Assembly (NCBI GenBank): GCA_030052745.1
Contig: JANBVO010000017.1
Coordinates: 620,001 to 684,000 of the forward strand
Source: Pleurostoma richardsiae
Lineage: Eukaryota > Ascomycota > Sordariomycetes > Calosphaeriales > Pleurostomataceae
DNA length: 64,000 bases
Direction of reading: 5' to 3'
Below, in pieces: positions 7,501 to 60,893 of this stretch (within the stretch, counting starts at the first letter, position 1; each line of letters starts with the position of its first letter). The notes under the pieces are model-generated. The model did not search any database and was not told where the DNA came from. It saw only the letters and a program-made list of their open reading frames with translations. The position numbers and the translations under genes are program-made.

Positions 7501-7779
7501 GGTCGGCATAGGAAGCTCGTCTTCGGCGGAAGTGTCCGGTACGGAGAGGTGAGGCTCAAAAGGATCGGTCGGCGTCAGAGCGGGGGACGGGAGATGGGCG
7601 CCGGCGCTGCTGGCAACAGTCTCTGTGCCTGTATCTCTCCTGCTGGGACCGTTTAAGGATATCTTATGCTGGCTGGCGGCCCTTTCTGGAGCTTCGAAAG
7701 TCGCAATCGCCTGCACAGCGGGTTTGGCTGCAGCCACGAGACGGTGGCCGTTCTGCTGCAGCGCCTCTCCCTCCGCCAT
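4591..7779 (-). CDS. Tapt1/Emp65 family multi-pass membrane protein (DUF747)
   Basis: Three exons, 7779-6064, 5996-5343 and 5277-4591, give about 1018 residues. Introns are 6063-5997 (GTGAGT..TTGCAG) and 5342-5278 (weak GTTCGC donor, ACCAG acceptor); both preserve frame. The first ~340 residues are Ser/Pro-rich and low complexity. Membrane segments start at an FLVLPFFLEG motif near residue 360 and recur through exon 2, which carries the conserved Tapt1 core (QDIFECLFSSETLSRNS, then FVEIKSSVFKRFEKEN and the DMVERFELW block). Exon 3 adds the last membrane spans and a charged C-terminal tail. Homologues act in the ER and early secretory pathway (yeast Emp65 with Slp1 in protein quality control; animal TAPT1 in ciliogenesis). 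The family call is firm; the second intron donor is the least certain point. Confidence 0.85.
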
Positions 7780-9305: not shown

Positions 9306-9590
9306 CGGTTACCCAGCATCTACGGAGGAGGCATGCACACGATTGCCGGGAGCACGAGCGCCCGCTTGGCTCGACTGATGGGAGATAGCGAATTCGGCGT
9401 CGGCACCGAGTCGGAGACATGCTCAATGTGCTCGGCGGGCACCGAGTTGGCCGGACCGGGTTCCGGCAAGCTGCACTTTACGTAAGACGGTCGTAGGCCG
9501 CTCTGATTCCAGGTTCTTCCTCTTTTGACCGGGAGCCTGACTCGGGGCCTCGATGGCCGTCGTCGTCCCCCCATCGATGCTTACGGTTTA

Positions 9591-30337: not shown

Positions 30338-32619
30338 CTATACACCGCTACAAAGCTCGTTATATCTAGTAACGACCTCCTGGAGCATGGTTCTAATCTT
30401 TTCTACAGTGGGATATTTGATACTCAGCGTACCAAACAGCTCAAGCACTAGATTCAAGTCACCCACTGCCCCGGTTTCCTTCAGCACACTGACAAGGTTG
30501 TCCGGCTGTGCCGTGACGGCGTATATCAGCGACAGTGCCGCTGTGAATACCGACAGCAAGTTGAGCCAGTTGTATGCGAATCGCTTCTGACGATGCATAT
30601 TGATGGCCTGGCGAATGGACATGGCAGCGGCGTCGGCAAGAATCTTGACTCGAGACTGGTCGAGCGTGGGAAAAAGAGGTGACGGGCGGTAGAGCATCGC
30701 TAGGTGCGTGTAAAAGTTGAAGTCATACCAGCTGGTGCTGGAATGAGGTACGCTCGGGTGTATATCAGGAAGTGGAAACGGCACGCTACGGCGCCATTCA
30801 ATGAGCTCATTGTGCAGGCACCGGGTGACCTCGTCTCGGTCTCCAACCTGTGGGGTCTTTGAGTAGACTTGCTTCGCGATCTTACTGGCCAATCTTCGCA
30901 GGGACAGGATGTGAAGCGGAATGGCCATAGTTGAAGGCTGGAGGGAGTTTCGAGGTGGTCGTAATATTCCATCTGGCGTTATGTCAACGTCCATGAAAGG
31001 CTGCCGTCGTCGCGTTAGCCATCACAACATCAAGAACCCGAGTTGGTGTGTCAGGTTGTCGGGTAGATCGAACATCTTACCGTTACGTCTATGTCGTCGT
31101 CGTGGAGGGCAAAGGGCCGACCGAGTGCCATGGACACGACTCTAATAAGGTCCCAATAGTGTGAGGCTCTCGTCCTTGGCAGGAGACACACAAACGCTTT
31201 GCTTACCGATCCATCATGTATATAGAGAAGAACACTCGCTTCCTTCTCTCAGCCAAGTCAGGCGGCATCGAATCGTAGGTACACGCTGCGTGTAGCCCCA
31301 TGCCAACAGCCATACGCGCGGCTAATCCAACCAGAAACCAAGTGTCTGGAGTACAAAAGCATTAGGTCTTCTTTCAGCACGAAGGGTTTAAAAAGAAAAG
31401 GAACATACTGGGCCCCAGCTGGTTGAAGAAAGAATACGATACTTGAAGTGTAATGACTTCTAGCGCCGCCTGGATGTGTATCAGCTTTCATACATGCAAG
31501 ACCACGCTGGCCAGGGTGGCACGGCCTACCATGTCCCCGTACCCCAGCGCCAACTCAAAATACTGCATTGCCTTGTTGTAATAGAGCATCGGCTCGGACT
31601 CTTCCATCAGGGAGACAGAACAATGGGCCGTCGCTCCTATCGCGAGGACAATCCATATCCTGAATAGCCAGAGCGGGGACCGCGCTAGCTGGTCCTGAGG
31701 GTTCTGGTGGATTTGCCGCAGTGCTGCCGTGAACTCGAGCTGGTTGATGATGGGATACAGGGTATGGGAGTGTGCGAAGTAGAACTCGACCAGATGCTGG
31801 AGATGGGCCTCCTCCGGGAGCTCCAAGCTTGCAAGGACGTCTGGAGGTTCGAATATGTCAGACAACGAGAAGTCTCCAAACAACGTCGGATATGCAGTGA
31901 GCGAGTTCTTGAAGTTGTTCATGATGGAGTTCAGGGCATCCGGTATCAGTGGCTGATCCTGTCGGACCTCCTCCTCTTCATGCCGACCCCGGAACACAAA
32001 CTCTGCCCTGTCCGGGGATAGGCGCTGCAGGACCATCTGCGTGAGCCTCGCGAACGACACCCCTGACGTAGAGCCGAGGTACCTCTCTGCTGCCGCCTCC
32101 AGCGAAAGTAGTTTTAGGCCCTCGACGAGGGAGCCGGGGGTTGCCCGGTGAGGGCTCGCTCCAACCCCGGGCACGACGTCAGAGAGTCTAACATCGACGT
32201 CGATGAAGGGATCCGTGTCTATATCCACCCAAGGAGCGGCTTCTAGATCTAGCGGGAGTGGTCCTGCATACTCGGCGTTGTTGCTCGTGCCGTTTGGCGA
32301 CTCCGCCTGATCGTTAGTTGCTGCCCGGGACGCCCCTGAGGCCGAAGCAAGCTCGTGCTCAAGGGCCCGAACCTTTGCCTCCAACCCTCGCACGAATCTA
32401 GGCGATGCAATCAGTCGTGAAGGCAGCGAGCTGGCGGGGCGGGACTCACGCGACAGAATACGAGCCCACCTGGCGGTCATCGTCGAGAAAACTGCAGGAA
32501 ACGTGGGCAAGGCGGCAATTTTCACACTGAGGCAAGGTGCGGTCGCATCTCTTCTTTCTCCGATGGCACCGCTGGCAGGAGAACCTTGCCTGGCCTGTGG
32601 ATAGAGGCGATGATGGCAT
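30338..32619 (-). CDS. Zn(II)2Cys6 transcription factor with Fungal_trans domain; candidate cluster regulator
   Basis: Six exons: 32619-32450, 32397-31530, 31469-31409, 31345-31207, 31141-31081, 31000-30338; 653 residues. The zinc cluster is C-Q-R-C-H-R-R-K-K-R-C-D...C-E-N-C...C near residues 12-40. A short coiled segment follows (GLEAKVRALEHELA). The Fungal_trans middle homology region includes FFNQLGP-NTWFLVGLAARMAVGMGLH, RRKRVFFSIYMMDR, VVSMALGRPFALHDDDIDV and a PDGI motif. The start at 32619 directly precedes the cluster; an in-frame ATG at 32832 would add 71 unconvincing residues. The exon 2/3 border is ambiguous: donors at 31529, 31505 or 31493 all keep frame to the acceptor at 31470. 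Two TCGG-N5-CCGA sites 454 and 501 bp upstream suggest self-regulation and control of the neighbouring genes. Confidence 0.85.
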
Positions 32620-33072
32620 CTCGTGAACAAACAGACCGGTGGTAACTGACAAGATTTCTAGGCCGCAGCCGACGACGACTTCATCCCCCTCCGGCCTCCG
32701 CTGGCCGTGGGCATGTCGAGACCGGCGGAGCCCGCTTATCTGCTGGCCGCTTTCTCGGGAACTACGGGGTTGTCCTATCTCCAGCCAATCACGCCTCGCT
32801 TGTTCTACCAACAAGTGAGCCTTCGGCATCACGGAACGCCCAGCAGTGTCTCTAGCAAGTCAACGCCTCAGACGAGATAGGTTTAGAAATCATTGTGAGT
32901 CGAAAAATAACGGGGAAAAGTTCGGCGCATGAGCCAGCTGGGCTCCGGAGGCCACACGCGTCTTCGACTTTCGGACTCTCCAAGCGTTTTCGCCTCCTCG
33001 GAGAGACGAAGACGCGAAGTTGACGCTATCCACTCTGCTCTTTAAGTCGGCTGCGGATCGACCTGCGCTACT

Positions 33073-33085
33073 TCGGTCGAACCGA
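33073..33085. promoter_or_regulatory. TCGG-N5-CCGA site, regulator promoter (distal pair, copy 1)
   Basis: TCGGTCGAACCGA: inverted CGG/CCG triplets with a five-base spacer, the arrangement bound by dimeric Zn2Cys6 proteins. It lies 454 bp upstream of the regulator start. Confidence 0.65.
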
Positions 33086-33119
33086 CTCAGTGCTGGAAGG
33101 CTTGGAGCTTCGGCGCAAG

Positions 33120-33132
33120 TCGGCTAGTCCGA
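33120..33132. promoter_or_regulatory. TCGG-N5-CCGA site, regulator promoter (copy 2)
   Basis: TCGGCTAGTCCGA, 47 bp from copy 1. Paired sites in the regulator's own promoter fit autoregulation. Confidence 0.65.
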
Positions 33133-33285
33133 CGCGTAACGATATGCATCAACGCCACGCAGTGCCATTTGCCATTCAACCACACACGGAACTACAGAAC
33201 TATCCATTGGTCAGGTCGTAGCACGTGATAGTTGCGACACAGGGCGCAAACAGATCTCTTAGACGTGCACGAGTGTATCTTATAT

Positions 33286-35049
33286 TCAACTATTCAGCTT
33301 CCGGCCGTGCTCAAACACAGCCGCTGCCCTGAGCACTGTCTCATCGGCCCACCGCTTTCCAACTATTTGCATCCCCACGGGAAGACGGACATCCGGATGC
33401 TGCGGAACAGTGGAATATCCACAGGGAGCACTCAGCGCCGGATGGCCCGTGACGTTGAAGGGACACGTGTTGCTCGTCAGACCGACGGCGGCCCGAAGCT
33501 TTTCCATTATCGTTGTTCCATTGCCATCGTCTTCCTTCAGCCGTGGATGGGGCATCGCGACCGTCGGTGCACATGGAGTGACTAACACGTCGACCTCCTG
33601 CAGTGCACGATCGTAGGCTGCCCGTAGTTCAAATACCTTCCGATGCGCTTTGGCCTCCACCGACGATCCGAAGCGCGCTTGGGCGAACTGTCCGCTGAAT
33701 ATAATGTTGACCAGAGCCGGGTTGGTAGAGGTCAGCAGTTCATACATCTCCTGATCCGGCGGCCACCGAGACCGGACATGCGGAGGTAGGAACGAGAGGT
33801 AGCCGCTCGTTTTCCCCTGACAGAGCCAGTCGGACATCGACGGTCTTGTGGACGCAGTCCAGATGACTGGACCCTCGCTGTGCATGGGCACGGAGATATC
33901 GACAACCTCTGCACCTGCAGCCTCAAAATGCCGCTTTGCATTCTGGCGGACAATGTGGCACACTTCTGGCGAAAGCCCTGGCGTGGAAAAGGACTCTGTC
34001 AACAGGCCGATCTTCAGTGCTTGGCCTTCCCCTGGGATTTTTTGTTCAAGTGTGTTCCTGAATTTCACCAGCAGCCGAGGGTAGTCCTTGACCTGATCTG
34101 GTAAAGGTGACTCGGGGCTCATTCGGGAATCTAGACCATCGTATCCGGCCATGACCTTCAGCAGCACGGCAATGTCCTCGAGCGTAGATGCTATCGGACC
34201 CAAGTGATCTATCATTGGAGACATGGAAACAGCACCCGTGTATGGCACTAAGCCGAATGTCGGCTTCAGACCGTAGATGCCGTTGTACGAGGCCGGGATC
34301 CTGATCGAACCGGCCTGGTCTCCCCCGATGGCGAGCTCTGCAGTTTCCCCCAGCCACCGCTCAAGCGAGGGCTGTATAACATGCGACGCAACGAGAACAC
34401 AAGACCCACTGCTGCTCCCTCCGGCCGTGTACCCGTCAAGGAGGGGATTCTGGACGGGACCAGTCGCCGAAGAAAATGACAATGGCGAGGCGCAGTAGTT
34501 CTCACATGTCGATGTCCCTTTCAGAAGCGCACCAGCAGAGAGCACTCGAGCAACAACGGTAGCGTCAATGGGTGAAGTCGGAAGAATTCTGTCTCGTGAT
34601 AGAAGCTGCGGAAACGTCCCGACTGTCGTTGGAAGCCCGCCAACGGAGATGTTATCTTTGATGGCAATCGTGCGGCCCTTCAGCGAGTCACCCCCGAGGT
34701 TTGCAGCTTCGAGCTCACAACGATGGCTCCATCCATTCAGAGGGTTGTCTTTCTGTTCTGGCCGCCAGTACGCGCGGGATGCAACGGTGGGCTGCGGCTG
34801 TAGCAGCGGGTGGATGTAGTCGTCGCTGTCTTCTACGTGCTTCAAGACGGACTCGAGGGATTGCAGAAGCAGCAAGAAATCCTCGGCATCCTGAATATCC
34901 GAGATTTTGATGTTCAATTCTGCTGCCAGACGATGCACGTCATCTATGCGGAGAGTAGATCTGCCCGCATCCTTAGCATTCGAACCACAAGTTGAGAGGT
35001 GCAGTTGAAACACTTACTGCGAACCGCCCGCGAGCGACACGATAGACAT
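33286..35049 (-). CDS. Amidase (amidase-signature family)
   Basis: Two exons, 35049-35018 and 34960-33286; 568 residues. The 57-nt intron (GTAAGT..GGGCAG, GCTAAG branch) joins MSIVSLAGGSQ to STLRIDDVHRLAAELNI. Ser-cisSer-Lys catalytic set: Lys in GRTIAIKDNI, cis-Ser in the TAGGSSSGS glycine/serine loop, nucleophile Ser in GGDQAGSIRIPAS. An insert of about 20 residues between the two serine motifs stays in frame and also occurs in some fungal amidases, so I do not treat it as an intron. The enzyme hydrolyses carboxamides (for example aryl-acetamides) to acid and ammonia. The start codon lies 134 bp from a TCGG-N5-CCGA site. No signal peptide. Confidence 0.9.
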
Positions 35050-35533
35050 CTTGGATCAGCAGTGAAGTTTCCGATGAAGGAGAACAGCTGTGGCACAGGC
35101 GCAGTCGACGCGCAGGTACAATTTGTCTCCCAGGTACGACAGACCTCAAGTTCGTGCGTCCCGCTCTGCTTCTTTCGTAGCGTCGGATGGGCCGACCAGC
35201 CAATGCGTGCGTGCCGGGTCATTCCGGTACGCTGGCTACCTTGACGATGGAGTTGTGATACAATGCGGATGGGTTGTACTTAGTACGCCAAAAATTTTGG
35301 AGCGCAGAGAAAAGCGCGGGGGCTGCGGGGTTTACTATGGCCAGGCGTATGTGAGGGCATGTGAACTTTCAGACGACATTGTCGAAGACTCTGTCTGTTT
35401 TATGGATTATCCGATCATTCTCGATTCTGTTACATTGACCGTTCCAGTTCAGACTGTGCTGGCTCGCCGAGAACGGCGTTGTCACATATGCCGCGCCGTT
35501 TATATCCTTGTCAAAGGCTTGCAAGCTTGTCGG
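35050..35533. other. Intergenic, amidase promoter
   Basis: About 0.48 kb with one TCGG-N5-CCGA site at 35183. Otherwise nothing recognised. Confidence 0.6.
35183..35195. promoter_or_regulatory. TCGG-N5-CCGA site, amidase promoter
   Basis: TCGGATGGGCCGA, 134 bp upstream of the amidase start codon. Same architecture as the sites at 33073, 33120, 36837 and 39014. Confidence 0.68.
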
Positions 35534-36665
35534 CTATTGTTGCCCGTTTGCTAGAAGTATGCGGCCACCATCAACACAAACAGAGATTCCGTTCACGTAC
35601 GCCTAGAAGAAGATCAGCGTGAGATTCGACCTTACAGAACCACTGGAATGTCATGCGACAACTGGGGATCGTCTACGAAGAGCGACTTACGCCTGCGGGG
35701 CTGGCGAGATAAATGACCACGCCGACCATGTCCTCTTCTTTTCCGGCCCTCTTGGCCGGCACTTTGTCAAAGAGGTTGCTGAATATATTACCTTCCTCTC
35801 CAACCGGGTTCATGTTACTGGGGACGACTTTTGGGGCGTTAGCAATGTTTTGATCTCGCCGCTCAGTGACGACCACTCACATCCGGGGTTGATGCCGACT
35901 ACCCTGACGTAGAAGCGGCTGAGCTTGGAAGCGAGCAGCCGGACAAGATGATCCGTGGCAGCCTTACTCGTAGCGTAACTGGTCAGATCCACGTTCGTCA
36001 CGTTATGCATGCTGGCGCAGGAACTCGTCACGACGATGACACCGCGCCCTTGGCTGTTGTCGCTGTCGAGCTGCGAAGCTGCCGCAAGAAGAGGCAGGAA
36101 GGCTACCGCCATGAAATAGTGAGCGGTCGTGTTGACGCTGAACGTGCTCGTCCAGTCCGAGTGCCGCGAAGACCACATTGACGCCTGCAGCTCTGGGATT
36201 GACGCTGTCAGCACGTCGCACTGAACAGGCGGGTCGCGTCTTATGCCGGCATTAGAAACAAGAATGTCGACGTGTGTTTCATGCTCGGCGATATACGCTG
36301 CGAGCTTGCCGATTTCCTCCTTTGAGGAAACATCGCATGGGACCCTGCCCGCTTCATGTCAGCCTTGAAGCGCGGGGAGTATTGACTTGCTACCAACCCA
36401 CGCGCACTTCCCCCTGAAGCTCGGCCAAGCTCGTTCAATTCTGCCACGCGCTCATCGATTGGGTCCGTAGGCAAGGCTACCACGTATAGTTTCGCTCCAT
36501 TTGTAACCAGTCCCTGCAACGTGGCTCATGAGCTGTGATCCGACAACGTCGAATGATGGAGGGACCTACTTTCGAAATCATGAAACCTAGGCCGCTGCTT
36601 CCGCCTGTTACGACAGCTACATAGCCCTTGACGCCGAACAGTTGCGAAACGTCGAGCGAAGACAT
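35534..36665 (-). CDS. Short-chain dehydrogenase/reductase (SDR)
   Basis: Five exons: 36665-36570, 36513-36398, 36344-35881, 35827-35691, 35602-35534; 293 residues. The classical SDR set is present: nucleotide motif TGGSSGLG (about 21-28), NAG in LVSNAGI, active-site Ser in VTSSCAS, and Tyr-x3-Lys in LTSYATSKAA. The C-terminus has the normal PAKRAGKEEDMVGVVIYLASP-AYVNG and VDGGR end. Weakest join is the exon 2 donor (GTTGGT), chosen because it is the only one keeping frame. NAD(P)-dependent oxidation or reduction of an alcohol/ketone is expected, substrate unknown. A TCGG-N5-CCGA site lies 172 bp upstream of the start codon. Confidence 0.88.
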
Positions 36666-37120
36666 GGCTGGATACACGTGTCAGCGGAATGTGACATCCA
36701 GTCAGAAGTTCGTTTGAATTTCCCTAAGCTCGCACGCTCTGTAGTTCTGCTCAAGTTAGATGTGTGGAATGATTAGCGTGGCTTTGAGATAAGGACCGGG
36801 TTCAGTCTAGGCGATCTTTCGCCAGAGGTGCTGCTGTCGGAGCGTCCGATTGAGGCTATAATACACGGTACATTGCCATCCTGAGCGCTAGCTCGACTCA
36901 TCTTGTACACCCAGTCGGCATCTCACCGTTTCGTGGAACAGCCAGTCGACGAGAGGACCCGCATATTGAATACTCTAAAACATATCATTTCTTAGGCGTG
37001 TAGCAATCTTAGTTTGATGGAGAAGTCCTGAATAAGTGAGGCGTGGGACGGGTGAAGATTGAGGCTATCTTTGCTATGTGCACCCAAGTGCTCTGCTTTT
37101 TTGCACCCGAGTGGTCCAGT
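36666..37120. other. Intergenic, dehydrogenase promoter
   Basis: About 0.45 kb. It holds a TCGG-N5-CCGA site at 36837 and an AT-rich stretch near 36960-37000. No gene. Confidence 0.6.
36837..36849. promoter_or_regulatory. TCGG-N5-CCGA site, dehydrogenase promoter
   Basis: TCGGAGCGTCCGA, 172 bp upstream of the start codon. The 16-mer CTGTCGGAGCGTCCGA (36834-36849) is repeated exactly at 39011-39026. Confidence 0.7.
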
Positions 37121-38876
37121 CTATTCCTTGTAGTAGTCCTTTGTCCTCTCCTCTGCAGCTGACAAACATTCGGCATTCATAGAAGCATCGCGCGGTACCA
37201 GCTTGACCTTGAAATCCCTTGGAATAGCCACCAACGCCGTTTTGAATTGATTGTACTCGACGTAATCCGTGTTAGGAGGCTCGCTTTCGCTGGCCACAAT
37301 CTTGTAGGATGCCAAGATGCGGACCAAGGCCGCGTACAAAAGACGGGACGCGATATATTGGCCCGAGCAGGCACGAGCACCCGTCCCGAAACTCAGATGC
37401 GGAAGGCCAGTGGTCTCGGCTTCAACTGGGGGGTCAATACTCTTGAGCCATCTCTCCGGGTCGAACTTTCCGCCGTCCGCGCCGAAATGGTCAACGTCTG
37501 CAAGCAAGTTAGCCCCGTTCCTTCAGTTTGCTGGAAGCTGGCAAGGAGAGGCCTACCGTGGTTGCCGGCCTGTGCATTGATCAGGACCATGGTCTTGGCG
37601 GGAATAATAGCCCCGTTCCAGTTGACGTCCGTTACCGTCTTCCGCGGAAGACTCATCGCGCTCACCGTGTAATATCGTCCTGCCTCCTTGACAATGGCAT
37701 TGACGTATGGAACCTTCTCCTCCACGTAGCTGCTGTTCCAGGCATCGCGGACATCCGGGTAGTATCTCTTGATATCCTCGTACGCGCGGTCTTGCCAAGC
37801 CTGCCCTTCCGGTGTCGATAGAGAACCAATGCAAGACGTCAACGTTCCGGGAATTGTCTCAAACCCACCGGAAACTAGAGACAGGCAGATCGAAGAGACC
37901 TCGACTCCGGTCAACTTTGTCTCCTCGTCTTTCAGGATGGCGGCGGAGATGCACGGCTTATCTGTGCCTGCCTTGATCATCTCTCGGACCTTATCTAGGA
38001 GGTGATTGAGGTACGCGTCTCGCCTGTCGCGCAGTTCCTTCGACCGCGCAGTCTTCTCATTATTAGGCACGTATCGCAGGATTGGCACGTAGTCCTGGTA
38101 GTTCTCGGAGGCGCTCCTCAATAACGAGATTGCAGAACCGACGTACAGGATCTCGCGCAGGAGGGTATCGTAGACCTCGTCCATGCGGATGCCGTAGCAG
38201 AGTGTCAGCGTCGTGTTCAGGGCATACCGCTGGATATAGGGCCGGACATTGAGCTCGATCTCTCCGTTCTTGCTGTCTTTGTGCAGGTCCCTCACGATGC
38301 AGTAGCTCTCTAGGTCGAACATGGGGTAGTAGTTCCTGAGCGCAGGCCGTCCCAGGGCAGTGCCCGCTGCCTTGCGCTTCTTCTTGCATGACTCATCCCA
38401 CGGAGAGGAGCCGATCGTGAAACCTTGGGTGCTGCTAATGACGCCATGGAAGGTGTACAGCTTCGGGCGGTCGATGAGTGCGTTCTGGTTCCCGAGCAGC
38501 ATCTTCTTGCAGTCGTCGAATGAGTTGACCACCACGGCCCGGGTGTTCCCCAGGCGGATCTGAAACACAGATTGCTTATATTGGCGCCACCACTTTTCGC
38601 ACACGGAGGCATGGTCGTCGCCAAGCTTAAGCAGGTGCCCGAAGACAGGAACCGCCCCTGGTATCTCAGGGATGCCTTTAATGTGCGGGATGTCCGTGGC
38701 GAACGCGACCTGGTATTCGGATTAGTGCTGGTTCACGACGAGTCGATCAAGGTGCTCACATGGTAGATGAGGTAAGACACGGCGACAACTGCCACCGCTA
38801 CTAGCACCGGAGTCAAAGGCTGCGCCGCCCTGGCACGCAGCAAGAGAGCATCTATGTCTATCTCGTGCTTCGACAT
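37121..38876 (-). CDS. Cytochrome P450, CYP504-like (phenylacetate/hydroxyphenylacetate hydroxylase type)
   Basis: Three exons, 38876-38760, 38709-37557, 37497-37121; 548 residues. Introns of 50 and 59 nt have clear signals. An N-terminal membrane anchor (PVLVAVAVVAVSYLIYH) is followed by the Pro-rich hinge (IPEIPGAVPVFG). P450 marks: I-helix SGGFETIP, ExxR in KEAGR, FDPERW, and heme loop FGTGARACSG (Cys about 467). The stretches MSLPRKTVTDVNWNGA and INAQAGNHDVDHFGADGGKFDPERW resemble fungal PhacB/CYP504B 3-hydroxyphenylacetate 6-hydroxylases, so aryl-acetate ring hydroxylation is the best guess; this is from memory of the family. It is an ER membrane enzyme needing P450 reductase. A TCGG-N5-CCGA site lies 138 bp upstream. 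Confidence 0.88.
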
Positions 38877-39013
38877 CTTGAGCTGCCAGTATCGGGAGTT
38901 TGGACTCGATGAGTACTCAGGTGAACGGAGTTCACGCAGCCTCCTTGATTTGTTTAAATGTCGGTGATGTCGACCTCAATCAAAACGGCAATGGCCCGAT
39001 GTTCTGTCGCCTG

Positions 39014-39026
39014 TCGGAGCGTCCGA
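39014..39026. promoter_or_regulatory. TCGG-N5-CCGA site, P450 promoter
   Basis: TCGGAGCGTCCGA, 138 bp upstream of the P450 start and identical in all 13 bases to the site at 36837. It could also act on the divergent PrpD-like gene about 790 bp away. Confidence 0.7.
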
Positions 39027-39545
39027 CACCATACCCACCCACAGCTATCACAGATAGTGCTTTGGTAAACAACCGCATTACAAATCTTTTCCAATGGGAT
39101 GATGCAACGTTTGGACGCGAAGGCAGCAAATACGGTTCACGACTATTGTGTGCTCGTCTTTGTCTGGATCTGGCACAACTATATCAAATGATAACCTATA
39201 CCCTTCCGTTAATTCGAACCACAGTCCGTGAAAGCCATCGTTCTTTACGCTTCTTTCAAAGCCAACAAACACCCGTGTCCGTTCTGCATGTAATTTCAGC
39301 TTGGAATCTAGACGTCCAAGTCCGCTCTTGGATCTCCTCTCCTGGTCCCTCAGCACTCCATTGGAAACTCGGATACCGGAAGCACGTGAATGACATCCAA
39401 TAGCGTTCAAGACTTGACGCGGAGTATGGGAGGACTGTTTCGATACGATAGACTTGACCTGAGCCACCTCCGCCGTCTTCACCAAGACAAAGGTACTGCA
39501 ATGTGAATTCTCCTCGGTTTTTGATATCTGACTAGTTGCTGCTGT

Positions 39546-39614
39546 TTCTGCGTCCTTGCCGATATTGACCGGCCTTGCTGGTGTTCTGCGACCTTGCCCA
39601 TATTGACCGACTTG
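39546..39614. repeat. Imperfect 31-bp direct repeat, 38-bp period
   Basis: Copies start at 39546 and 39584; the shared core is CCTTGCC(G/C)ATATTGACCG. It lies about 200-270 bp upstream of the PrpD-like start codon. Confidence 0.6.
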
Positions 39615-39818: not shown

Positions 39819-41338
39819 ATGTCTCCTCTCACTAATACTCAAGTTACTGCCCCCGATGGGGCAACTGGCAAGCTCTGCACTTGGATTAGTAATTTGTCCG
39901 AAGATTCAGCGCCTCCTGAAATACTCGAAAGAGTGAAATACCTTATCCTGGACGGCATCGGCTGTGCCCTCGTGGGTGCCCATCTTCCTTGGTCCGAGAA
40001 GGCTGCCAAAGCTGTTCTCGATATGGAGTCTCTGGGCAACGCCACGGTGTTTGGCTGGCAGACGGTACGCTGACAATCCTGTTCACGATTCTTTGCAAGA
40101 CAAGTCTTGCAGTTCTGACTCGTTAATAGAAAATAAGCCCGGTGTCAGCCGCTCTCATCAACAGCTCTTTCATTCAGGGGTTTGAGCTGGATGATTGGCA
40201 TCTTGATTCTCCATGGCATTCGAGCTCAATCTTGCTACCTGCCCTTCTCGCTGCCGCAGAATATCTCACCAGTCCGCTCGCCGGTTCCGGGGCGGCTCCT
40301 GTTCCTGGAAAGTCGTTTATCCTGGCATATCTCGTTGGTCTCGAGGTGGGACCGCGGGTTGGCAACGCCCTGCGCGGCCGCGACATGCTCACACGAGGCT
40401 GGCACTCCGGTGTTGTATTCGGAGGACCTGCGGCGGCGGCGGCGGTTTCCAAACTCATGTCTCTGTCCTCTGGCGCCACCGAAGACGCGGTCGGGATTGC
40501 ATGCACGCAGGGCTGTGGTCTAATGTCTGCGCAGTTCGAGAGCGAGGTGAAGCGGATGCAGCACGGTTTCGCCGCCCGCAACGGCCTCTTCGCTGCTCTC
40601 TTGGCTCGTGCTGGATACGTCGGCATCAAACAAGTGCTGGAACGCCCCTACGGCGGATATCTTTCCATGTTCAGCGCCGGCACCACAAAGACGCCTCCAT
40701 ATTTGATTGAGGAAGTCACTGCGGGTTTGGGGACCATATGGCAGGCCGATGGGGTTCGACCAAAGGCCTACGCAGCCATGGCTGGAACACACGGATCGGT
40801 CGACTGCATGCGAATTCTGCAGGAACAGTATCCCAACCTCATGGAAAATCTAGACAGTATTCAAAGCATCAATCTGGAAATGACCGAACCTCAGTACCAT
40901 CACGGAGGGTGGAAAGCACGGAGACCTCTGACCGCCACTGGTGCGCAGATGAGCTGTGCATTTGTCGCAGCGACACAACTCATCGACAGAAAGGTTACAC
41001 CAGAAGAGTTCACGACAGAAAAGCTCGATCGAGATGCCATCTGGAAACTGGTCAGTAAGATAACCTGCGTCCAGAATGACAGCATAGAGTGCCAAGCAGC
41101 CGCTGTCTTGTTCACTGATGGCACGAGCTTGACGGTTAAGGTCGACAAGCCTAAAGGCTTCGACCCTGCATTAAGTAATGAAGAAATTGTCGAGAAGTGG
41201 AGGTTAGCAACAGACGGAGTGATTGATGAAAATCGGCGTGATAAACTGGAGGAGCTTTGTCTTAACCTAGATACTATTGGGGATGTAACACAGTTGGCTA
41301 GACTCTTATCGGGCTCAACTATTAACCAAATCGAGTAG
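39819..41338 (+). CDS. MmgE/PrpD family protein, cis-aconitate-decarboxylase-like
   Basis: Two exons, 39819-40064 and 40130-41338 (65-nt intron, GTACGC..TTAATAG), 484 residues. The ATG at 39819 follows an in-frame GTG that is not needed. Typical MmgE/PrpD content: ILDGIGCALVGAHLPWSEKA near the start, an FIQGFELDDWH motif, the ALRGRDMLTRGWHSG segment, SAQFESEVKRMQHGFAARNG, and a long C-terminal lid domain. The family includes 2-methylcitrate dehydratase and cis-aconitate decarboxylase, and the RPLTATGAQMSCAFVAA segment is more like the decarboxylase branch. The substrate cannot be set from sequence. Divergent from the P450 across a shared promoter. Confidence 0.85.
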
Positions 41339-42204
41339 ACATGTATTATAGTTACGTATCCTTATTGGTGCTTGTCTACACCGTGGAGCCCGCCTGTGCC
41401 TAGGACGCTGTTTTCAGGGATGTCAGTGCTGACCCTGCTGAGACTTTTCGAGGTTATTCATGGCAAGCTTAACGGGGAGCTAGCTGCAGACGTTGGGCTC
41501 GCCGCAACGCGCTTTCTGCTCTACAACTAGTTGTGAAAAGGAAGGTCAGGAGGAGAGAACAACAAATACTCTTGCCCCGCTCGCCTAGGCGCTCAACGGT
41601 CCGTGGCGGTCCGGATGCAACATAGATAGCAGTAGCGACCCCGCTGAGATATATGTCGTCTCAGGCTCCGAAGATCGGCATGATCTTGCTGAAATAACAG
41701 GGCCGCAGCGTGTCAATGAGCGACTCCGTGGTCCGGCTATCATCGGACCTTCGAGAAGACTTGGGCAGACCGTCAAGGCTTATCAGGCTGGAAATAGACG
41801 CTGGCTCAGGGATTCCGGCTATCATTTCCAAACTGTTCTAGGGGCTCAGTGGAGTCCAGGGTCAGCGATGATTCCCCACGTGGTGGAAGCGACTATGAAC
41901 CAGGGTTAGCCAAATAGACTTCCGATTCCAATCAGCACCTCGGAATCTACTGCATCGGGGAACGCAGTGATACCACAGGGCGATCAACTGAACAATGATA
42001 AGGATCAGCCACCGGCGCAGGAAGGCGTCCTGCCTCTTTTGGCAACTCAAGATTGTCGATGTATCAAAGTCCGAATAGTAAACGGTGTAGATGAGGTTAT
42101 AAGACTCCAGTCGATGTTGGCATCTGGACGATCTCCATGGTTAACATACGTTCTACGGGCCCGCTTTGCACCATTTTCCATTATACTCCGCCTTCGTTGT
42201 CCTA
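41339..42204. other. Intergenic
   Basis: About 0.87 kb. It has CGG/CCG-rich words near 41600-41620 and 41725-41750 in other spacings than the cluster motif. No gene. Confidence 0.5.
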
Positions 42205-54696: not shown

Positions 54697-56277
54697 TCAT
54701 TCGCTCGTACCCCTAGCCTTCTTGTCAACCAGGTTTTCCTCCTTCTCAGAGGTCTGACTGGGTGATCTGCCATTCACGGCCTTCTCCTCATCCGCAGGCG
54801 GATGCGGCGTCTTATCCCTCAGCGCAAACTTGGACCGCGCCCGGATCGCGGCGCCATACTTGTAGAACACGAAAGGTATGGGCATCAGCAGCACGCCCAC
54901 CCCTCCAATGAGGGAGCCAGCCCCGCCCACGCCGAGCTTGCCAAACATGTATCGCGTGAAGAGGGGGGACGCCGCGGCGCAGGCAGACCGCAGGACAGTG
55001 TTTGCTGCGAGGGCGGACGCAGCGTATACCAGGTACGAGTCGATGATATAGTTGATGAAGACGACGAAGATGAGCAGGATTGACATGGAGAGGAAGGTGC
55101 CCGCCACGGTCGGCACGGCCCAGTGGACCGAGTCGTATTCCGCCGTCCAAGCGAACCAAAATATCGTCACGGCGAACACAACCCCGCCGACCATGGCGCC
55201 GGGCAGGCGATCTTCTGGGACCGACTTGTGGCTGTGGATGGACTTTTTCTGGCCTATTTGGCTATCGATGAACAGCGCCAGGCCGCCGAGACATGCGCCG
55301 ATGACTGTGCCGATCAGTGGCAGTTCACCGACGCCGGCATCCCAACCACGCTTCTGCTGGAAGACAATGGGGTAGATGCTGAAGAGCATGTACAGCAGAG
55401 TATAGACGACTGCGTAGTAGATGGCGACGAAGAAGCTGATTGGGTCGATGAGAAGTCTCCAAGGCCTCGTCAGCGCGACTTTGAAGATGCCTCCGAGGGA
55501 ACGATTCGAGGCCTCGACTGGAGCCTTGACGCTTTCCTTGCCGGCCGTCTTGCGTAGGCGGCGCGCCTTGTTGTGCAGGACCGTTATGGGAAGGGTCTCT
55601 GGGAGAGTGATGAGCAGAAGCTCGGTGGCGCCCGCCATCCAGAGGAGGACGTAGAAAGTCCAACGCCACGTCTTTTTTACTTGGAGGAATCCACTGACCA
55701 CTGGCCCAAGAGCGGGTCCCACGAATGTCATTGTGGCAAACAATATCATGGCATTGCCACGGTCGACGGGCCCCCATATGTCTGCGAGGACGCCAGGTGC
55801 ATTCGTTAGGGCAGCACTGGCGGCGGTGCCAGTCGAAAAACGGCCAATCAAGAGCCCGGTGAAATTGGGCGTAAAGGCGCAGAGGAACCCAAAGGCTAGG
55901 TAGAGGGTGAAGGAGATATAGAAAATCCAGCGACGGCCGTAGAACTCGGACAAAGGCGCCCAGAAGAGCGGGCCGGCGCAGTAGCCCAGGAGGAAGAGGG
56001 TGGTAACGAGGCCGGCGACTTCGACAGAGACGTGAAGGTCGTCGCTGATGCCCTGAAAAGAGCCAGATGGTGCAGATGAGGAGAAGGTGGCATTCATGAC
56101 GAGGGATATGGCGATGGCGGTGATGTAGCACTTCCGTCCAAACGAGTAGTTCTTTGGGTTTTCGGGGTCGTCGGGTGCGAACTCGAGGTAGCCATCCTTG
56201 TCAAAGAAGAGCCTCTCATCCGACCCTACGTTGGGAATCGAGGTCGACCCTAGCAAGTCGCGCCTGACAGAGTCCAT
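54697..56277 (-). CDS. MFS transporter, DHA1 (drug:H+ antiporter) type
   Basis: Single exon, 526 residues, from the ATG at 56277 (an in-frame upstream extension adds 73 unlikely residues). About 12 membrane segments. Motif A reads PLSEFYGRRW between segments 2 and 3, and the antiporter motif C is GPALGPVVSGF in segment 5. The soluble N-terminus (DPENPKNYSFGRK) is typical of fungal DHA1 polyamine/drug exporters. A central cytosolic loop holds RRLRKTAGKE. The C-terminal tail is charged. A plasma-membrane efflux role is inferred. It is divergent from the nitroreductase across a 571-bp shared promoter and near a Zn2Cys6 regulator, which suggests a small detoxification unit. Confidence 0.9.
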   Translation of the reverse strand: MDSVRRDLLGSTSIPNVGSDERLFFDKDGYLEFAPDDPENPKNYSFGRKCYITAIAISLVMNATFSSSAPSGSFQGISDDLHVSVEVAGLVTTLFLLGYCAGPLFWAPLSEFYGRRWIFYISFTLYLAFGFLCAFTPNFTGLLIGRFSTGTAASAALTNAPGVLADIWGPVDRGNAMILFATMTFVGPALGPVVSGFLQVKKTWRWTFYVLLWMAGATELLLITLPETLPITVLHNKARRLRKTAGKESVKAPVEASNRSLGGIFKVALTRPWRLLIDPISFFVAIYYAVVYTLLYMLFSIYPIVFQQKRGWDAGVGELPLIGTVIGACLGGLALFIDSQIGQKKSIHSHKSVPEDRLPGAMVGGVVFAVTIFWFAWTAEYDSVHWAVPTVAGTFLSMSILLIFVVFINYIIDSYLVYAASALAANTVLRSACAAASPLFTRYMFGKLGVGGAGSLIGGVGVLLMPIPFVFYKYGAAIRARSKFALRDKTPHPPADEEKAVNGRSPSQTSEKEENLVDKKARGTSE

Positions 56278-56848
56278 TGCTTGTGCTGGCCGTCGAAAGA
56301 AGTGACAGCTGCAGTCTCGACAAGTCTCGAGCTGCTGAGGACAGATTGTTTCCTGGAGGGACTTTAAAGCGACTCCCTGCCGAACTGTGTAATCTGCTGA
56401 ATCATCTTCATGACAACGGAGCGTCAGCAGGGCAGTGACGCGGCAGTAGAGAAGATTCAAAATCGAGTTGTGAACATTGCTGATCAACCCATTCAAGATT
56501 CTACTACGAGTATTCCGGGTAGCATATTACCGCATCTGGCAATTCTTCTTGCTCGGCCCGCTCGGGTCTGGGATCCACTGTGGGGCCGATGCCCGAATGC
56601 GGGAATTCTTGGCTCGGTTCCGAGACGTTATACAAGGCGGGGCCAATCAATGTCAATGCCTCCTCCCATCACCTACTGTCTATTCCCCTGCTGCCGAATT
56701 CGCAACACGTTTATGAGGTTCTTCTGTCTCGCTTCACGACTGCGGTCGCCTCGAATAGTCATGGTCTTCTCTCGTCCTTCACTCGACTTTTCGAGCCGTG
56801 GCCAAAGCACCAGCACCATCCAGTCTCGCCAGCCTCACCAGTCTCAGA
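56278..56848. promoter_or_regulatory. Shared divergent promoter of MFS transporter and nitroreductase
   Basis: 571 bp between the two start codons. It holds CTCGGTTCCGAG (56613-56624), a 12-bp sequence with CTCGG/CCGAG arms and a two-base gap, and a CCCGAATGCGGG word at about 56591-56602. Both carry CGG/CCG triplets of the kind Zn2Cys6 proteins recognise. The regulator at 58615 is the nearest candidate binder. Confidence 0.5.
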
Positions 56849-57493
56849 ATGGCATCTCCCATCGTCACGATGAGCTTCACCGAGGCGGCTCAGAAGCGCC
56901 GCAGCATCCGCGCCCTCGAATCAAAGACGACGGTCCCCGACAGTACCATTGTCAGGCTGGCCGAGGCCGCCATCCTCACTGTCCCATCGGCCTTTGACAG
57001 CCAGTCGACTCGGCTGACGGTTGTGTTTGGGGATGACCACAAAAAGCTCTGGTCCATCGCTGCTGACGCGCTGCGGGCGAAGATTGGCGAGGAGCGCTGG
57101 AACAAGGGCGTCAAGGACCGTATCGCCGACTTTGCCAACGGCTACGGGACCATCATGTTCTGGGATGACCAGTCGTGCGCGGCCGCGATGAAGGAGCACG
57201 CGCCGGACATATACAAGGACAAGACGGAGGAGTGGGTGCAGCAGAGCAACGGAATGCACCAGTACTACCTGTGGACTGCGCTCGAAGCCCTGGGGCTGGG
57301 GGTCAACCTGCAGCACTACAACCCCCTCATCGATGCCGAGGTGCAAAAGACGTGGAGCGTCCCATGGAACTGGAAGCTGAAGGCACAGATGGTGTTCGGC
57401 GTACCTAAGGAGGGCAGCGCACCGGGAGAGAAGTCGCAGAAACTTCCCTTGGAGCAGAGGCTGCAGGTGTTTGGAGCGAATGCAGAGAAGTGA
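56849..57493 (+). CDS. Nitroreductase family protein (Frm2/Hbn1-like)
   Basis: Single exon, 214 residues from the ATG at 56849 (56870 also possible). FMN-binding start RRSIRALESKTTVPDSTI (R-x-S-x-R), then LAEAAILTVPSAFDSQSTRLTVVFG, a conserved GTIMFWDD strand, and the central helix HQYYLWTALEALGLGVNLQHYNPLID. This matches fungal oxidoreductases of the Frm2/Hbn1 group, which bind FMN and reduce nitroaromatics or quinones with NAD(P)H. Cytosolic. Its place beside an exporter fits a reduction-plus-efflux detoxification role, which is inference. Confidence 0.9.
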   Translation: MASPIVTMSFTEAAQKRRSIRALESKTTVPDSTIVRLAEAAILTVPSAFDSQSTRLTVVFGDDHKKLWSIAADALRAKIGEERWNKGVKDRIADFANGYGTIMFWDDQSCAAAMKEHAPDIYKDKTEEWVQQSNGMHQYYLWTALEALGLGVNLQHYNPLIDAEVQKTWSVPWNWKLKAQMVFGVPKEGSAPGEKSQKLPLEQRLQVFGANAEK

Positions 57494-58614
57494 GGGTAAA
57501 GGTTGAACCCTGGAGAAAGAATCAAGTGAGGAGTGACTGATGGAGGAGAAGGGGAAGTCAATATTGATAGAGGAGTGAATGATTGCTGGAGGGGTTGGAA
57601 GTATCTTTCACATACTAGATCGGATGAACACTAGACGTCGACGATCTTATTAGATCCCCTATATTCGATGGACCGAAATCAGCAGTACAATTATAACGCT
57701 GCTTCATAGGTCAGCGAGGGCATGCCAGAGAACTAGAATCACTAGATCAGCTTTGCAAAGTGAAATTGACAACTGCGAGTAGCTGCTGCGAGCTGTTTCG
57801 AAACGTCACATGAAAAGCCGCGGATGCACGTTTTCTGGATGTAATTAACGCTTCGAAGACACCGACAAGTGGATTAGACACGAAGTTTGGTAGTATACTC
57901 AAGAGGAAGAGCAGTGGCACTGTACTATGGAGAATGCCGACGCCTCGCAATGTGGCGACTTTTGTCTTCGCGACAAACGGCTTCTGCTCTCTCATCTGAA
58001 TCGACGACATGATCTGGAACCGGTACGTGACGAACCTGCTACCTAGCCGATAGACCTTGAACAGGAATTTAGTCTTGAGTCGGACCCTCTTGCCCAAGCC
58101 GATGAGGACTGAGCCCAGATATTGGTGCGGCTTGTGTGGAAAGCTTGCATCTGCGGAATGTATTATAACGTCATGAAAACGAGGAATGTGCATGTTTGTC
58201 AGCACTGGCGGAAAGGTGACGACGTTAATTATTGGGCATGCATAGAGACGAATAAGTGGACATGTTGTCAAAGAGGACGTCTCGACTCTCTTTTGAAGCA
58301 AGGGATTTGGACTGCTGGTAGAGATAAGCCACAAAGCTAAATATAATCAAGAATTAGAAGCGTTTTTTGATGATGTTGCATCCAGCTTAGGATTTACATA
58401 AGATATAACTAATAGGTATCCATATAATTTTGCATAGTGACGGTTACAGTTACGGGCACCCGTACATTTAACTAGTGGATCCCCACATGTCAGGGTGAAT
58501 TATTAAGCTGCCTCAAGAACCGGAAGCCTGACAACAGATTCGCGGACATTAACCGTGGCATCCATCCTCCAGGAGCTTCCTCTCTTAAGCATAGAGACAT
58601 ATAACAGAACCTCC
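57494..58614. other. Intergenic with one long minus-strand frame
   Basis: About 1.1 kb. A 195-codon minus-strand frame (57747-58334) has two hydrophobic segments and basic stretches but no family signature and no clear ATG context, so I leave it uncalled. Confidence 0.4.
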
Positions 58615-60893
58615 ATGTTTTACAGATTCTCTGCAACCCCTGCAAAGGCACGCAACCGGACCAGAGGCTCCGGGTCGGCTCGCGCCAGCAACCCTAGCAA
58701 CAACAAGGGTAGGGAGACAGACGCCAGCTCTCGCCCTGAACATACAGTTCTTCCGCTGGTCAGGCGGCAAAAGATTGCCAGAGCCTGTGACCGCTGCCGC
58801 CGGCACCGCATCAAGTGTGATGAGCAGAAACCGTGCGCACAGTGCGTTGGCATCAAGGCAAAGTGCACCGTGTCCAACGCCCCTTCTCGCTCCTCTCAGC
58901 CCAACAACTGCGACACCGGCCAGACGTGGTGCGAATCGTCGTCAGTACTCCCTCCAAGACCACCTTCTGCCTTCGCCTACTCATAATGCATGTCAGGTCC
59001 TCCGCCCGCCCTCAATCAAATGACGGCCTGAAAGGCTCCAACGGCGCCAGGACCAGCCCGATCAGTCCATCTATCCCTTCCTCTCGCATGAGTATGAGCC
59101 AGGAGAGCCCCTGGGCGACAAGAACCCCGCCGGATAATGCCCTTAAGGAGACTTTAGACCTCGCCTCTCACATCCAGGACTTCTTCACCAGCGGGCAGCC
59201 GGTCTTGTCACATCCCTCTGCCCTCGCTGCCTGCCTCTTCCCCCAGCTCCCGTATCCCGCCATTCCTTCGGGGGAACGCCCTCTAGCGTCGAACGCGCTG
59301 CTCAGGAGCCAGCGGCGCTACTATCTCCGGCTTTTCTGGGATGCTTGCCACCCGCTTCTGCAGATCATGAGCGAGACAGAGTTTGTCGAGCTCGACGCCC
59401 TGCCGCCACCAACCATGTTTAATGAGTATTCGGCAAGGAACGCCCTGGTCGATTCCATGATCGCTCTGGGAATACAGCACAGCCGTGCCACTGGTCTTGC
59501 CGGACGGATATTGGGTCTCCAGCAGCAACCCCCCCGGCAGTACTACCATGCAGCCCCATCACCGGAAACCGCCTGGCCGGGCTTCGAATACTTCCATCGG
59601 TGCCGTGAGTGCATGAGGACCAACACGGAGATGACCTTGGAGGTCCTACGATGTCACGCTCTCATGGCCCTCTATCTCATGAAGGGAAATGATTTCCGCG
59701 ATGCCTACAATCTTCTCGGCATCACTGTCCGCAAGGCCTACATCGCCAAACTCCATCGGCTGCCACCGAGCTATCTGCCCGAGGCGGAAAAGACTGCTCG
59801 CATGCAACTGTGGTGGGTACTCTTCTCCCTGGATCTTCAGTGCTCGCTGCAGCTCGACATGCCCGCGGCCTGCCAGAAGAGCTTCGTCAAATGCCCCTTT
59901 CCTGCCGAGGACGCCCTCGCCCGCTACGTCTCCTCTCCAAGCTATAGCGAGGGAAGCATGAACGCTTACACGTACTCCATTCGTCTGGTCAACCTCGCCG
60001 TTATTGTGACCGATATTGCCGCGTGCGTCTCGACCGCGGATCTCGTCGACGGCGACGGCAATAGCCCAGCAGCTCTTGAACACCACGCCCTCAACCTCTC
60101 CTCAGTCCTCCAGAACCTCGAGGTCTGGCGCGACCAGCTGCCTTCAGAGCTGCTGCTCAGCTGGTGTGGGAATGGGTCCGGCGATACTGAGATGCTCGAC
60201 TTTGACCGCAACCTGACCTTGCCCGCCTGGCTGCAGCGGCAAACGGTGCTTTTGGAGCTTCAATATCACAACGCATACACGCTGATTCAGCGTGCCTTCA
60301 TCCGTCCCCGCTCCTCCTGCTCGCGCGATGCCGGAGGTATGGTCACCTCACCCGACTCCTGGCAACCGCACGTGGAGCTACACATTGCCAGCGCCCTCCA
60401 CCATGCAATCAAAATCGTTGACACGATCTTCACTGTTTGTTCCATGTCCGACGTCCTCTACGGCTGGTCAGAGGTCCTACCGCCGCTCTGGAACGCAACG
60501 CTGACAATCACGGCCTACGTCTACGCCAACTCGCTGAACTCCGTGGTGCCGCGGGCGCTAGACTCCCTCGCGCGCGCCCAGGCCATCTTCGAGTCCTTCT
60601 CCCCCACCTGCCCGACTGCCCTCTCCGCAAAGGGCATTATCCAGTCGCTCGCCGATAGCCTGCAGAGCATGATGGCACAGGTCTCGTGCACAGTTGTCAA
60701 CCATGATCCGATGGGCTGGGACCTCTTCGCGTCGCTGCTCAAGGAGCAGGAGACGTCCCCAGCCGGCCTGGAGAACGCTGCCTCGTCTAATGATCTTTGT
60801 GGCAGCGTGCTCTTCTCACCCATCATACCCTCGGCCTCGCACATCAGCACCCCCAAAGACAACTCGGCGACCATGCAGTTCGGCGACTTGTGA
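58615..60893 (+). CDS. Zn(II)2Cys6 transcription factor with Fungal_trans domain
   Basis: Two exons, 58615-58928 and 58997-60893; 736 residues. The intron (68 nt) has a GTGCGA donor and GTCAG acceptor; another donor at 58938 (GTCGTC) is weaker. The zinc cluster is ARACDRCRRHRIKCDEQKPC followed by C-x2-C-type AQCVGIKAKC, near residues 55-87. The middle homology region includes RYYLRLFWDACHPLLQIMSE, SMIALGIQHSRATG, ALMALYLMKGNDFRDAYNLLGITVRKAYIAKLH and ARMQLWWVLFSLDLQCSLQL, resembling xylanolytic-activator (XlnR-like) Fungal_trans regulators. It lies next to the nitroreductase and MFS genes and could control them. The target set is unknown. Confidence 0.87.

What the first reader, a model, noticed from the sequence alone, without database searches (positions are those of the whole stretch)
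33073..39026. Five TCGG-N5-CCGA sites mark a regulon of regulator, amidase, SDR and P450
The palindromic 8-base pattern TCGG-N5-CCGA occurs at 33073, 33120, 35183, 36837 and 39014. All five are intergenic. Three lie 134, 172 and 138 bp upstream of the amidase, SDR and P450 start codons, and two lie upstream of the local Zn2Cys6 regulator. Eight fixed bases predict about one hit per 65 kb. Dimeric Zn2Cys6 proteins are known to bind CGG-Nx-CCG, so the 30338-32619 protein is the natural binder and probably controls itself.
Basis: partly seen in the sequence, partly recalled or inferred. Interest (0 to 1): 0.85.

Follow-up and report, generated by a model that had tools for sequence, protein, structure and literature searches.

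The report
Fungal catabolic cluster with shared operators
A fungal gene cluster (regulator, amidase, dehydrogenase, P450) carries the same rare DNA pattern in front of its enzyme genes and its regulator gene, which most likely lets the regulator switch the pathway, and perhaps itself, on together; binding has not been tested.

Summary
Five TCGG-N5-CCGA sites lie between a Zn2Cys6 regulator, an amidase, an SDR and a P450, at the stated places; a sixth exact match in the window (13359) is inside a carboxypeptidase frame. The clump is unlikely to be chance: of 256 half-sites x 21 spacings this is the only palindrome present in all four gaps; 0 of 1000 shuffles and 1 of 1000 real-sequence draws did as well. 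The 39.4-Mb genome holds 808 sites. The motif extends to GTCGG-N5-CCGAC (62 in the genome, three here). The fungus is Pleurostoma richardsiae. Regulator and P450 relatives share 36 contigs among the 120 rows listed for each; regulator, amidase and P450 share 13, this one included, so the cluster is conserved. The regulator's DNA-binding domain is closest in the PDB to yeast PPR1. A diverged P450 copy elsewhere has a 14-of-15-base copy of the P450-promoter site upstream. Best reading: a pathway-specific, perhaps self-controlling regulator of an amide/aryl-acid catabolic cluster. Binding, expression, substrate and site conservation in other species are untested. New member of a known kind.

The parts
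30338..32619 (-). Zn2Cys6 regulator gene, 6 exons, 665 aa; introns 32449-32398, 31493-31470, 31408-31346, 31206-31142, 31080-31001
   Evidence: spliced; Zn_clus 1.7e-8 in the frame 32446-32859; deposited protein P0125 (653 aa), 98% identical, PF00172 + PF04082
33286..35049 (-). amidase gene (amidase signature family), 568 aa, intron 35017-34961
   Evidence: Pfam Amidase 1.2e-66; spliced model identical to P0245; best PDB relative 3a1k, 2.9e-70
35534..36665 (-). short-chain dehydrogenase/reductase gene, several introns (exact exons not modelled)
   Evidence: adh_short 3.4e-22; start and stop codons checked
37121..38876 (-). cytochrome P450 gene, 548 aa, CYP504-like; introns 38759-38710 and 37556-37498
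   Evidence: p450 2.5e-40; model; P0005 100% identical, named phenylacetate 2-hydroxylase; relative P0105 named CYP504E1, 81%
33072..33086 (.). site 1: TTCGG-TCGAA-CCGAC, in the regulator-amidase gap
33119..33133 (.). site 2: GTCGG-CTAGT-CCGAC, all ten motif bases, 47 bp from site 1
35182..35196 (.). site 3: GTCGG-ATGGG-CCGAC, amidase promoter
36836..36850 (.). site 4: GTCGG-AGCGT-CCGAT, SDR promoter
38960..38974 (.). additional one-mismatch site GTCGG-TGATG-TCGAC, P450 promoter, 53 bp from site 5
39013..39027 (.). site 5: GTCGG-AGCGT-CCGAC, P450 promoter; same N5 and CTG flank as site 4 (16 bases in common)
39819..41338 (+). MmgE/PrpD-family gene, divergent from the P450; possible further target, not shown
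   Evidence: MmgE_PrpD_N 5.8e-51 and _C 6.7e-35; start and stop codons checked

Best explanation
The sites are operators of a pathway-specific regulon. The 665-aa Zn2Cys6 protein encoded at 30338-32619 binds GTCGG-N5-CCGAC as a homodimer, one zinc cluster on each inverted CGG, with its linker and coiled coil setting the 5-base gap. From sites 134-172 bp upstream of their start codons it switches on the amidase, SDR and CYP504-like P450 genes together, and through the site pair at 33072-33133 perhaps its own gene. The enzymes most likely form a catabolic route: the amidase frees an acid (possibly an aryl-acetic acid) from an amide, the P450 hydroxylates the ring, and the SDR makes a redox step. 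Shown: the sites, their clustering beyond chance, the gene and domain identities, and same-contig conservation of the genes across fungi. Inferred: binding, the direction of regulation, autoregulation, and the substrate.
For: Only palindrome of 5376 tested present in all four gaps; 0 of 1000 shuffles, 1 of 1000 real draws. Flanks not used to find the sites agree too: 8 of 10 flanking bases continue the palindrome as G...C, chance 9e-4 at the genome's own rate. Extra one-mismatch site in the P450 promoter. Three of the 62 exact 10-base genome sites are here. The regulator's six zinc cysteines are invariant in the 23 sequences I aligned (of 120 listed) and the linker is 16 residues in 21 of the 23. 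Its closest solved relative is PPR1, 2.8e-5. Best paralogue by E-value 28%. Regulator and P450 share 36 listed contigs, regulator and amidase 24, all three 13. A diverged P450 copy on contig C83, scoring higher with this P450 than with the paralogues on C51, C104, C44 and C48, has GTCGGAGAGTCCGAC, one base from site 5, 253 bp upstream of its first matching stretch, while the rest of the promoter does not align.
Against: No binding or expression data. Site conservation in other species not testable here. The two regulator sites are 454-501 bp from its ATG and might not act on it. One of 1000 real-sequence draws was as extreme. The motif is not favoured genome-wide (808 against 985 for the reversed control; 62 against 128). 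With one mismatch allowed the genome has 2346 sites and a clump of six is expected about 0.1 times per genome, so that grade adds little. The C83 match was noticed after the fact. Short stretches of other Zn2Cys6 proteins reach 43% in the DNA-binding region (C44:623065). The substrate rests on family names only; no listed 10-base site lies within 14 kb of the HgmA matches that phenylacetate breakdown would call for.
Confidence: 0.75

Rival explanations
1. The sites are functional operators, but of a different Zn2Cys6 protein encoded elsewhere; the local regulator binds something else.
For: Zn2Cys6/Fungal_trans proteins are numerous in this genome (71 stretches match the local regulator, 4 of them its own exons), many proteins of this family read CGG repeats (PMC5559640 passages), and no binding was tested.
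Against: The regulator gene shares contigs with the enzyme genes across fungi, has sites in its own upstream gap, and its domain is closest to PPR1, which reads a TCGG inverted repeat (recalled).
Confidence: 0.13
2. The clump is a coincidence or a by-product of base composition, with no regulatory role.
For: The pattern is G+C-rich and occurs 808 times in the genome; 1 of 1000 real-sequence draws had a pattern reach five hits, and 1 of 1000 had a pattern in all four pieces; the pattern was picked by eye.
Against: Testing all patterns at once still leaves 0 of 1000 shuffles; independent flank agreement and the extra site; sites stay at 134-172 bp from three start codons.
Confidence: 0.07
3. The sites mark a wider phenylacetate/homogentisate regulon, of which this cluster is one part.
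For: Many P450 relatives are named phenylacetate 2-hydroxylase.
Against: None of the 60 listed exact sites is within 14 kb of any of the ten HgmA matches (nearest 14.9 kb, on C93); two of the 62 sites are not listed.
Confidence: 0.05

Closest known systems
PPR1 (yeast) and UaY (Aspergillus) Zn2Cys6 regulators
   Same: PPR1 is the best solved relative of the DNA-binding domain (1pyi, 2.8e-5); inverted TCGG/CCGA half-sites (recalled); pathway-specific control of a metabolic route.
   Different: Their gap is 6 bases (recalled; not stated in any passage I saw); here it is 5. Only the zinc cluster region aligned (residues 11-48).
GliZ of the gliotoxin cluster, TCGGN3CCGA
   Same: Cluster-resident Zn2Cys6 regulator with the same half-sites in promoters of its cluster (PMC7022936, passages).
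   Different: Gap of 3, not 5; secondary-metabolite cluster.
AflR, TCG-N5-CGA (recalled)
   Same: Cluster-resident Zn2Cys6 regulator with a palindromic site.
   Different: Here TCG and CGA are 7 apart and the inner bases are G...C.
PhacA-type CYP504 phenylacetate hydroxylases
   Same: The P450 is named after them in public records; a relative is named CYP504E1; CYP504 enzymes take part in phenylacetate breakdown in A. nidulans (PMC10785452, passage).
   Different: A distinct lineage: paralogues in this genome reach at most 53% in the stretches (54.5% for the C83 piece), while the best 120 listed relatives in other organisms are 79-87%. Activity unknown.

Membership tests
Zn2Cys6 (Gal4-type) regulators | Six-cysteine zinc cluster (here CX2CX6CX6CX2CX6C) | tested here: met
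   Sequence; cysteines 15, 18, 25, 32, 35, 42 invariant in 23 aligned sequences; Zn_clus 1.7e-8
Zn2Cys6 (Gal4-type) regulators | Linker and coil after the cluster, Fungal_trans domain | tested here: met
   Linker of 16 residues in 21 of 23, 17 and 18 in the others, followed by a VRGLE...LE segment (coil not predicted by a program); PF04082 precomputed for P0125
Zn2Cys6 (Gal4-type) regulators | Binds CGG repeats as a dimer | not testable with these tools
   No binding data
PPR1/UaY site type | TCGG-N6-CCGA (recalled) | tested here: not met
   No N6 site in the cluster; the two in the window are at 9432 and 59756
GliZ site type | TCGG-N3-CCGA | tested here: not met
   No N3 site in the window
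CYP504 P450s | Sequence identity with named members | tested here: met
   81% over 96% to a protein named CYP504E1 (P0105)
CYP504 P450s | Phenylacetate 2-hydroxylase activity | not testable with these tools
   The name is a database label only
Co-regulated gene cluster | Same sites in promoters of orthologous genes in other species | not testable with these tools
   No fungal DNA besides the window's own genome; empty

The most novel reading that the evidence does not exclude
A so far undescribed catabolic regulon, conserved across filamentous ascomycetes, in which a dedicated PPR1-like regulator reads GTCGG-N5-CCGAC and switches on an amidase, SDR and CYP504E-type P450 for an unknown amide-linked aromatic substrate.
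Probability: 0.55. Interest if true: 0.5.

Novelty: new member of a known kind. Interest (0 to 1): 0.4.

Why it matters
It gives a concrete, testable operator for a regulator that travels with one enzyme set in many filamentous ascomycetes (species names; that they span Sordariomycetes, Eurotiomycetes and Dothideomycetes is recalled). A P450 that stays 79-87% identical among its best 120 listed relatives points to a conserved, unassigned reaction; knowing the operator would let anyone list the regulon in other species and look for the inducer.

Tried and rejected

Link to homogentisate breakdown: the ten HgmA matches in the genome are 14.9 kb or more from the listed sites; not evidence for a phenylacetate regulon.

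Promoter duplication as the source of sites 4 and 5: in the 20 bases shown on each side they share only CTG next to the site, 16 bases in all; rejected.

Sites near other paralogues: apart from the C83 P450 remnant, none of the 60 listed exact 10-base sites is within 2 kb of a listed regulator, P450 or amidase match outside the window (my comparison by eye). The nearest are a P450 stretch on C1 (462045-462632) and a regulator stretch on C56 (302283-303083), each about 2.6 kb from a site, a second P450 stretch on C83, 3.3 kb, and regulator stretches on C44, 5.3 kb; none was followed up. One-mismatch hits in four fetched paralogue loci: one inside the C51 P450, one about 4 kb from the C104 P450, none in the other two.

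Literature (open-licence library only): no paper for TCGGN5CCGA or TCGGNNNNNCCGA; one paper with CGG-N5-CCG, a motif pointed out in a cdr1B promoter without proof of binding there in the passages I saw (PMC5215518). The spelling CGGN5CCG was searched only together with Zn2Cys6 (601 papers hold at least one of the two, none of the 15 listed holds CGGN5CCG). No paper holds CYP504E. The listings showed no title or abstract start about this cluster; of their papers I saw passages of PMC2657799, PMC7022936, PMC10785452, PMC5559640 and PMC5746545, nothing of the rest beyond the listing.
Full report
WHAT IS THERE. The window lies in a 39.4-Mb fungal genome. The P450 and amidase encoded here are identical, and the regulator 98% identical, to proteins deposited for Pleurostoma richardsiae on a contig of 711,114 bases, the length of contig C46 that holds the window. 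On the minus strand are a Zn2Cys6 regulator (30338-32619), an amidase (33286-35049), an SDR (35534-36665) and a P450 (37121-38876); a MmgE/PrpD-family gene starts divergently at 39819.

THE OBSERVATION. TCGG-N5-CCGA occurs six times in the window. Five are in the gaps of this cluster, 134, 172 and 138 bp from the amidase, SDR and P450 start codons and 454 and 501 bp from the regulator's. The sixth, 13359, is inside a carboxypeptidase frame. Genome-wide there are 808, fewer than the 985 of the reversed control, so the word itself is not favoured.

IS IT MORE THAN CHANCE. TCGG at gap 5 has five hits and is the only pattern in all four gaps. The next, GTCG at gap 7 with four hits, is three of the same sites plus the extra site at 38960. 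In 1000 dinucleotide shuffles no pattern reached five or stood in all four. In 1000 draws of real sequence of the same lengths, from the window outside 30-41.4 kb and seven genome stretches, one draw had a pattern reach five and one had a pattern in all four pieces. The bounds used include 20 bp of the SDR's end. At the genome rate these gaps should hold 0.05 sites.

THE MOTIF IS LONGER. The bases next to the eight fixed ones were not used to find the sites. Of ten such bases, eight continue the palindrome to GTCGG-N5-CCGAC, where the genome's own rate predicts 2.8 (probability 9e-4). Three sites are perfect and two have one mismatch. A further one-mismatch site lies at 38960 in the P450 promoter, so that the regulator gap and the P450 promoter hold pairs 47 and 53 bp apart. 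Perfect sites number 62 in the genome, against 128 for the reversed control; 60 are listed, and no other 6-kb stretch of those has three. With one mismatch allowed there are 2346 (reversed control 3115), and six in 6 kb would be expected about 0.1 times per genome, so that grade means little alone. Elsewhere in the window there are four of that grade, at 3118, 10666, 13358 and 48961.

THE BINDER. I aligned 23 of the 120 listed regulator sequences, the window's own included, choosing rows that keep the N-terminus. The six zinc cysteines are invariant and the stretch from the last cysteine to the conserved VRGLE segment is 16 residues in 21 of 23. The closest solved relative of the domain is PPR1, which reads TCGG half-sites with a gap of six (recalled). 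In its own genome the best other match by E-value is 28% identical over residues 257-610; shorter stretches reach 43%, one of them in the DNA-binding region (C44:623065). Only 67 of 180 candidates were scored. No other regulator is therefore an obvious competitor, but none is excluded.

THE CLUSTER IS CONSERVED. The shared lengths are 35 kb or more, so coincidence is unlikely. Same contig is not the same as adjacent, but gene tags are close in cases such as Neonectria ditissima g3844 amidase and g3847 regulator, and Pestalotiopsis fici 13068 regulator, 13071 amidase and 13076 P450. Single predicted proteins that hold SDR and P450 domains (P0034, P0047, P0051, P0058), SDR and amidase (P0287, P0330), regulator and P450 (P0151) and SDR and regulator (P0220) suggest adjacency in those species, probably as merged gene models. 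The P450 is 79-87% identical among the best 120 listed relatives of 687 found.

A SECOND LOCUS. One of the 62 perfect sites, C83:41625, lies 253 bp upstream of a diverged P450 stretch that matches from residue 50 and has a stop and gaps in its next piece; the corresponding distance in the window is 334 bp. The first piece scores 50.1 bits with this P450 (54.5% of 33 residues) against 36.2 and 34.7 for the paralogues on C104 and C51; the second piece scores 36.6 bits with this P450 and at most 16.9 in the four paralogue loci. The site differs from site 5 by one base of the N5, and apart from these 16 bases the two upstream stretches show only trivial matches of 9 bases. I noticed this by comparing lists, so it is support, not a test.

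HOW IT PROBABLY WORKS. The regulator dimer binds GTCGG-N5-CCGAC upstream of the three enzyme genes and, perhaps, of its own gene. An inducer, likely the substrate or a product, would activate it. The amidase's best solved relative is 3a1k, 'Amidase' (a bacterial enzyme of nitrile breakdown, recalled), and the P450 is CYP504-like, a family that takes part in phenylacetate breakdown (PMC10785452 passage). An amide of an aryl-acetic acid is a fair guess for the substrate; I give that about one in three. No listed site lies within 14 kb of the ten HgmA matches, so a broad phenylacetate regulon is not supported.

WHAT IS NOT SHOWN. Binding, transcription, autoregulation, substrate, and site conservation in other species. 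No DNA of related fungi was reached. Whether the other 803 genome sites sit in promoters was not examined.

NOVELTY. Cluster-resident Zn2Cys6 regulators with palindromic CGG sites are well known: GliZ with a gap of 3, AflR and PPR1/UaY recalled. A gap of 5 as a proven site was not found in the searches, a weak negative. This is a new member of a known kind, with a clear prediction.

Noticed in passing
window 39546-39571 and 39584-39609: A 26-nt direct repeat (92% identical, 38 bp apart) upstream of the MmgE/PrpD gene; perhaps a binding site of another regulator.
   Followed up: no
L040:7015-7373 and 7626-7640 (C83:41014-41372 and 41625-41639): Diverged P450 start with a stop and gaps, nearest to the window's P450, with a site one base from the window's P450-promoter site upstream.
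   Followed up: partly
genome: Ten matches to the HgmA (homogentisate dioxygenase) family on nine contigs, two of them neighbouring on C76; that this is many for one fungus is my impression.
   Followed up: no
P0246, P0247, P0249: The closest amidase relatives (72%) come from unnamed metagenome sources, closer than the best named fungus (67%).
   Followed up: no
C56:299709 and C56:302283-303083; C1:465207 and C1:462045-462632: Two exact 10-base genome sites lie about 2.6 kb from a regulator-like and a P450-like stretch.
   Followed up: no
window 54697-60893: An MFS transporter frame, a nitroreductase frame and a second Fungal_trans regulator frame; no GTCGG-N5-CCGAC site with one mismatch or fewer there.
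   Followed up: no
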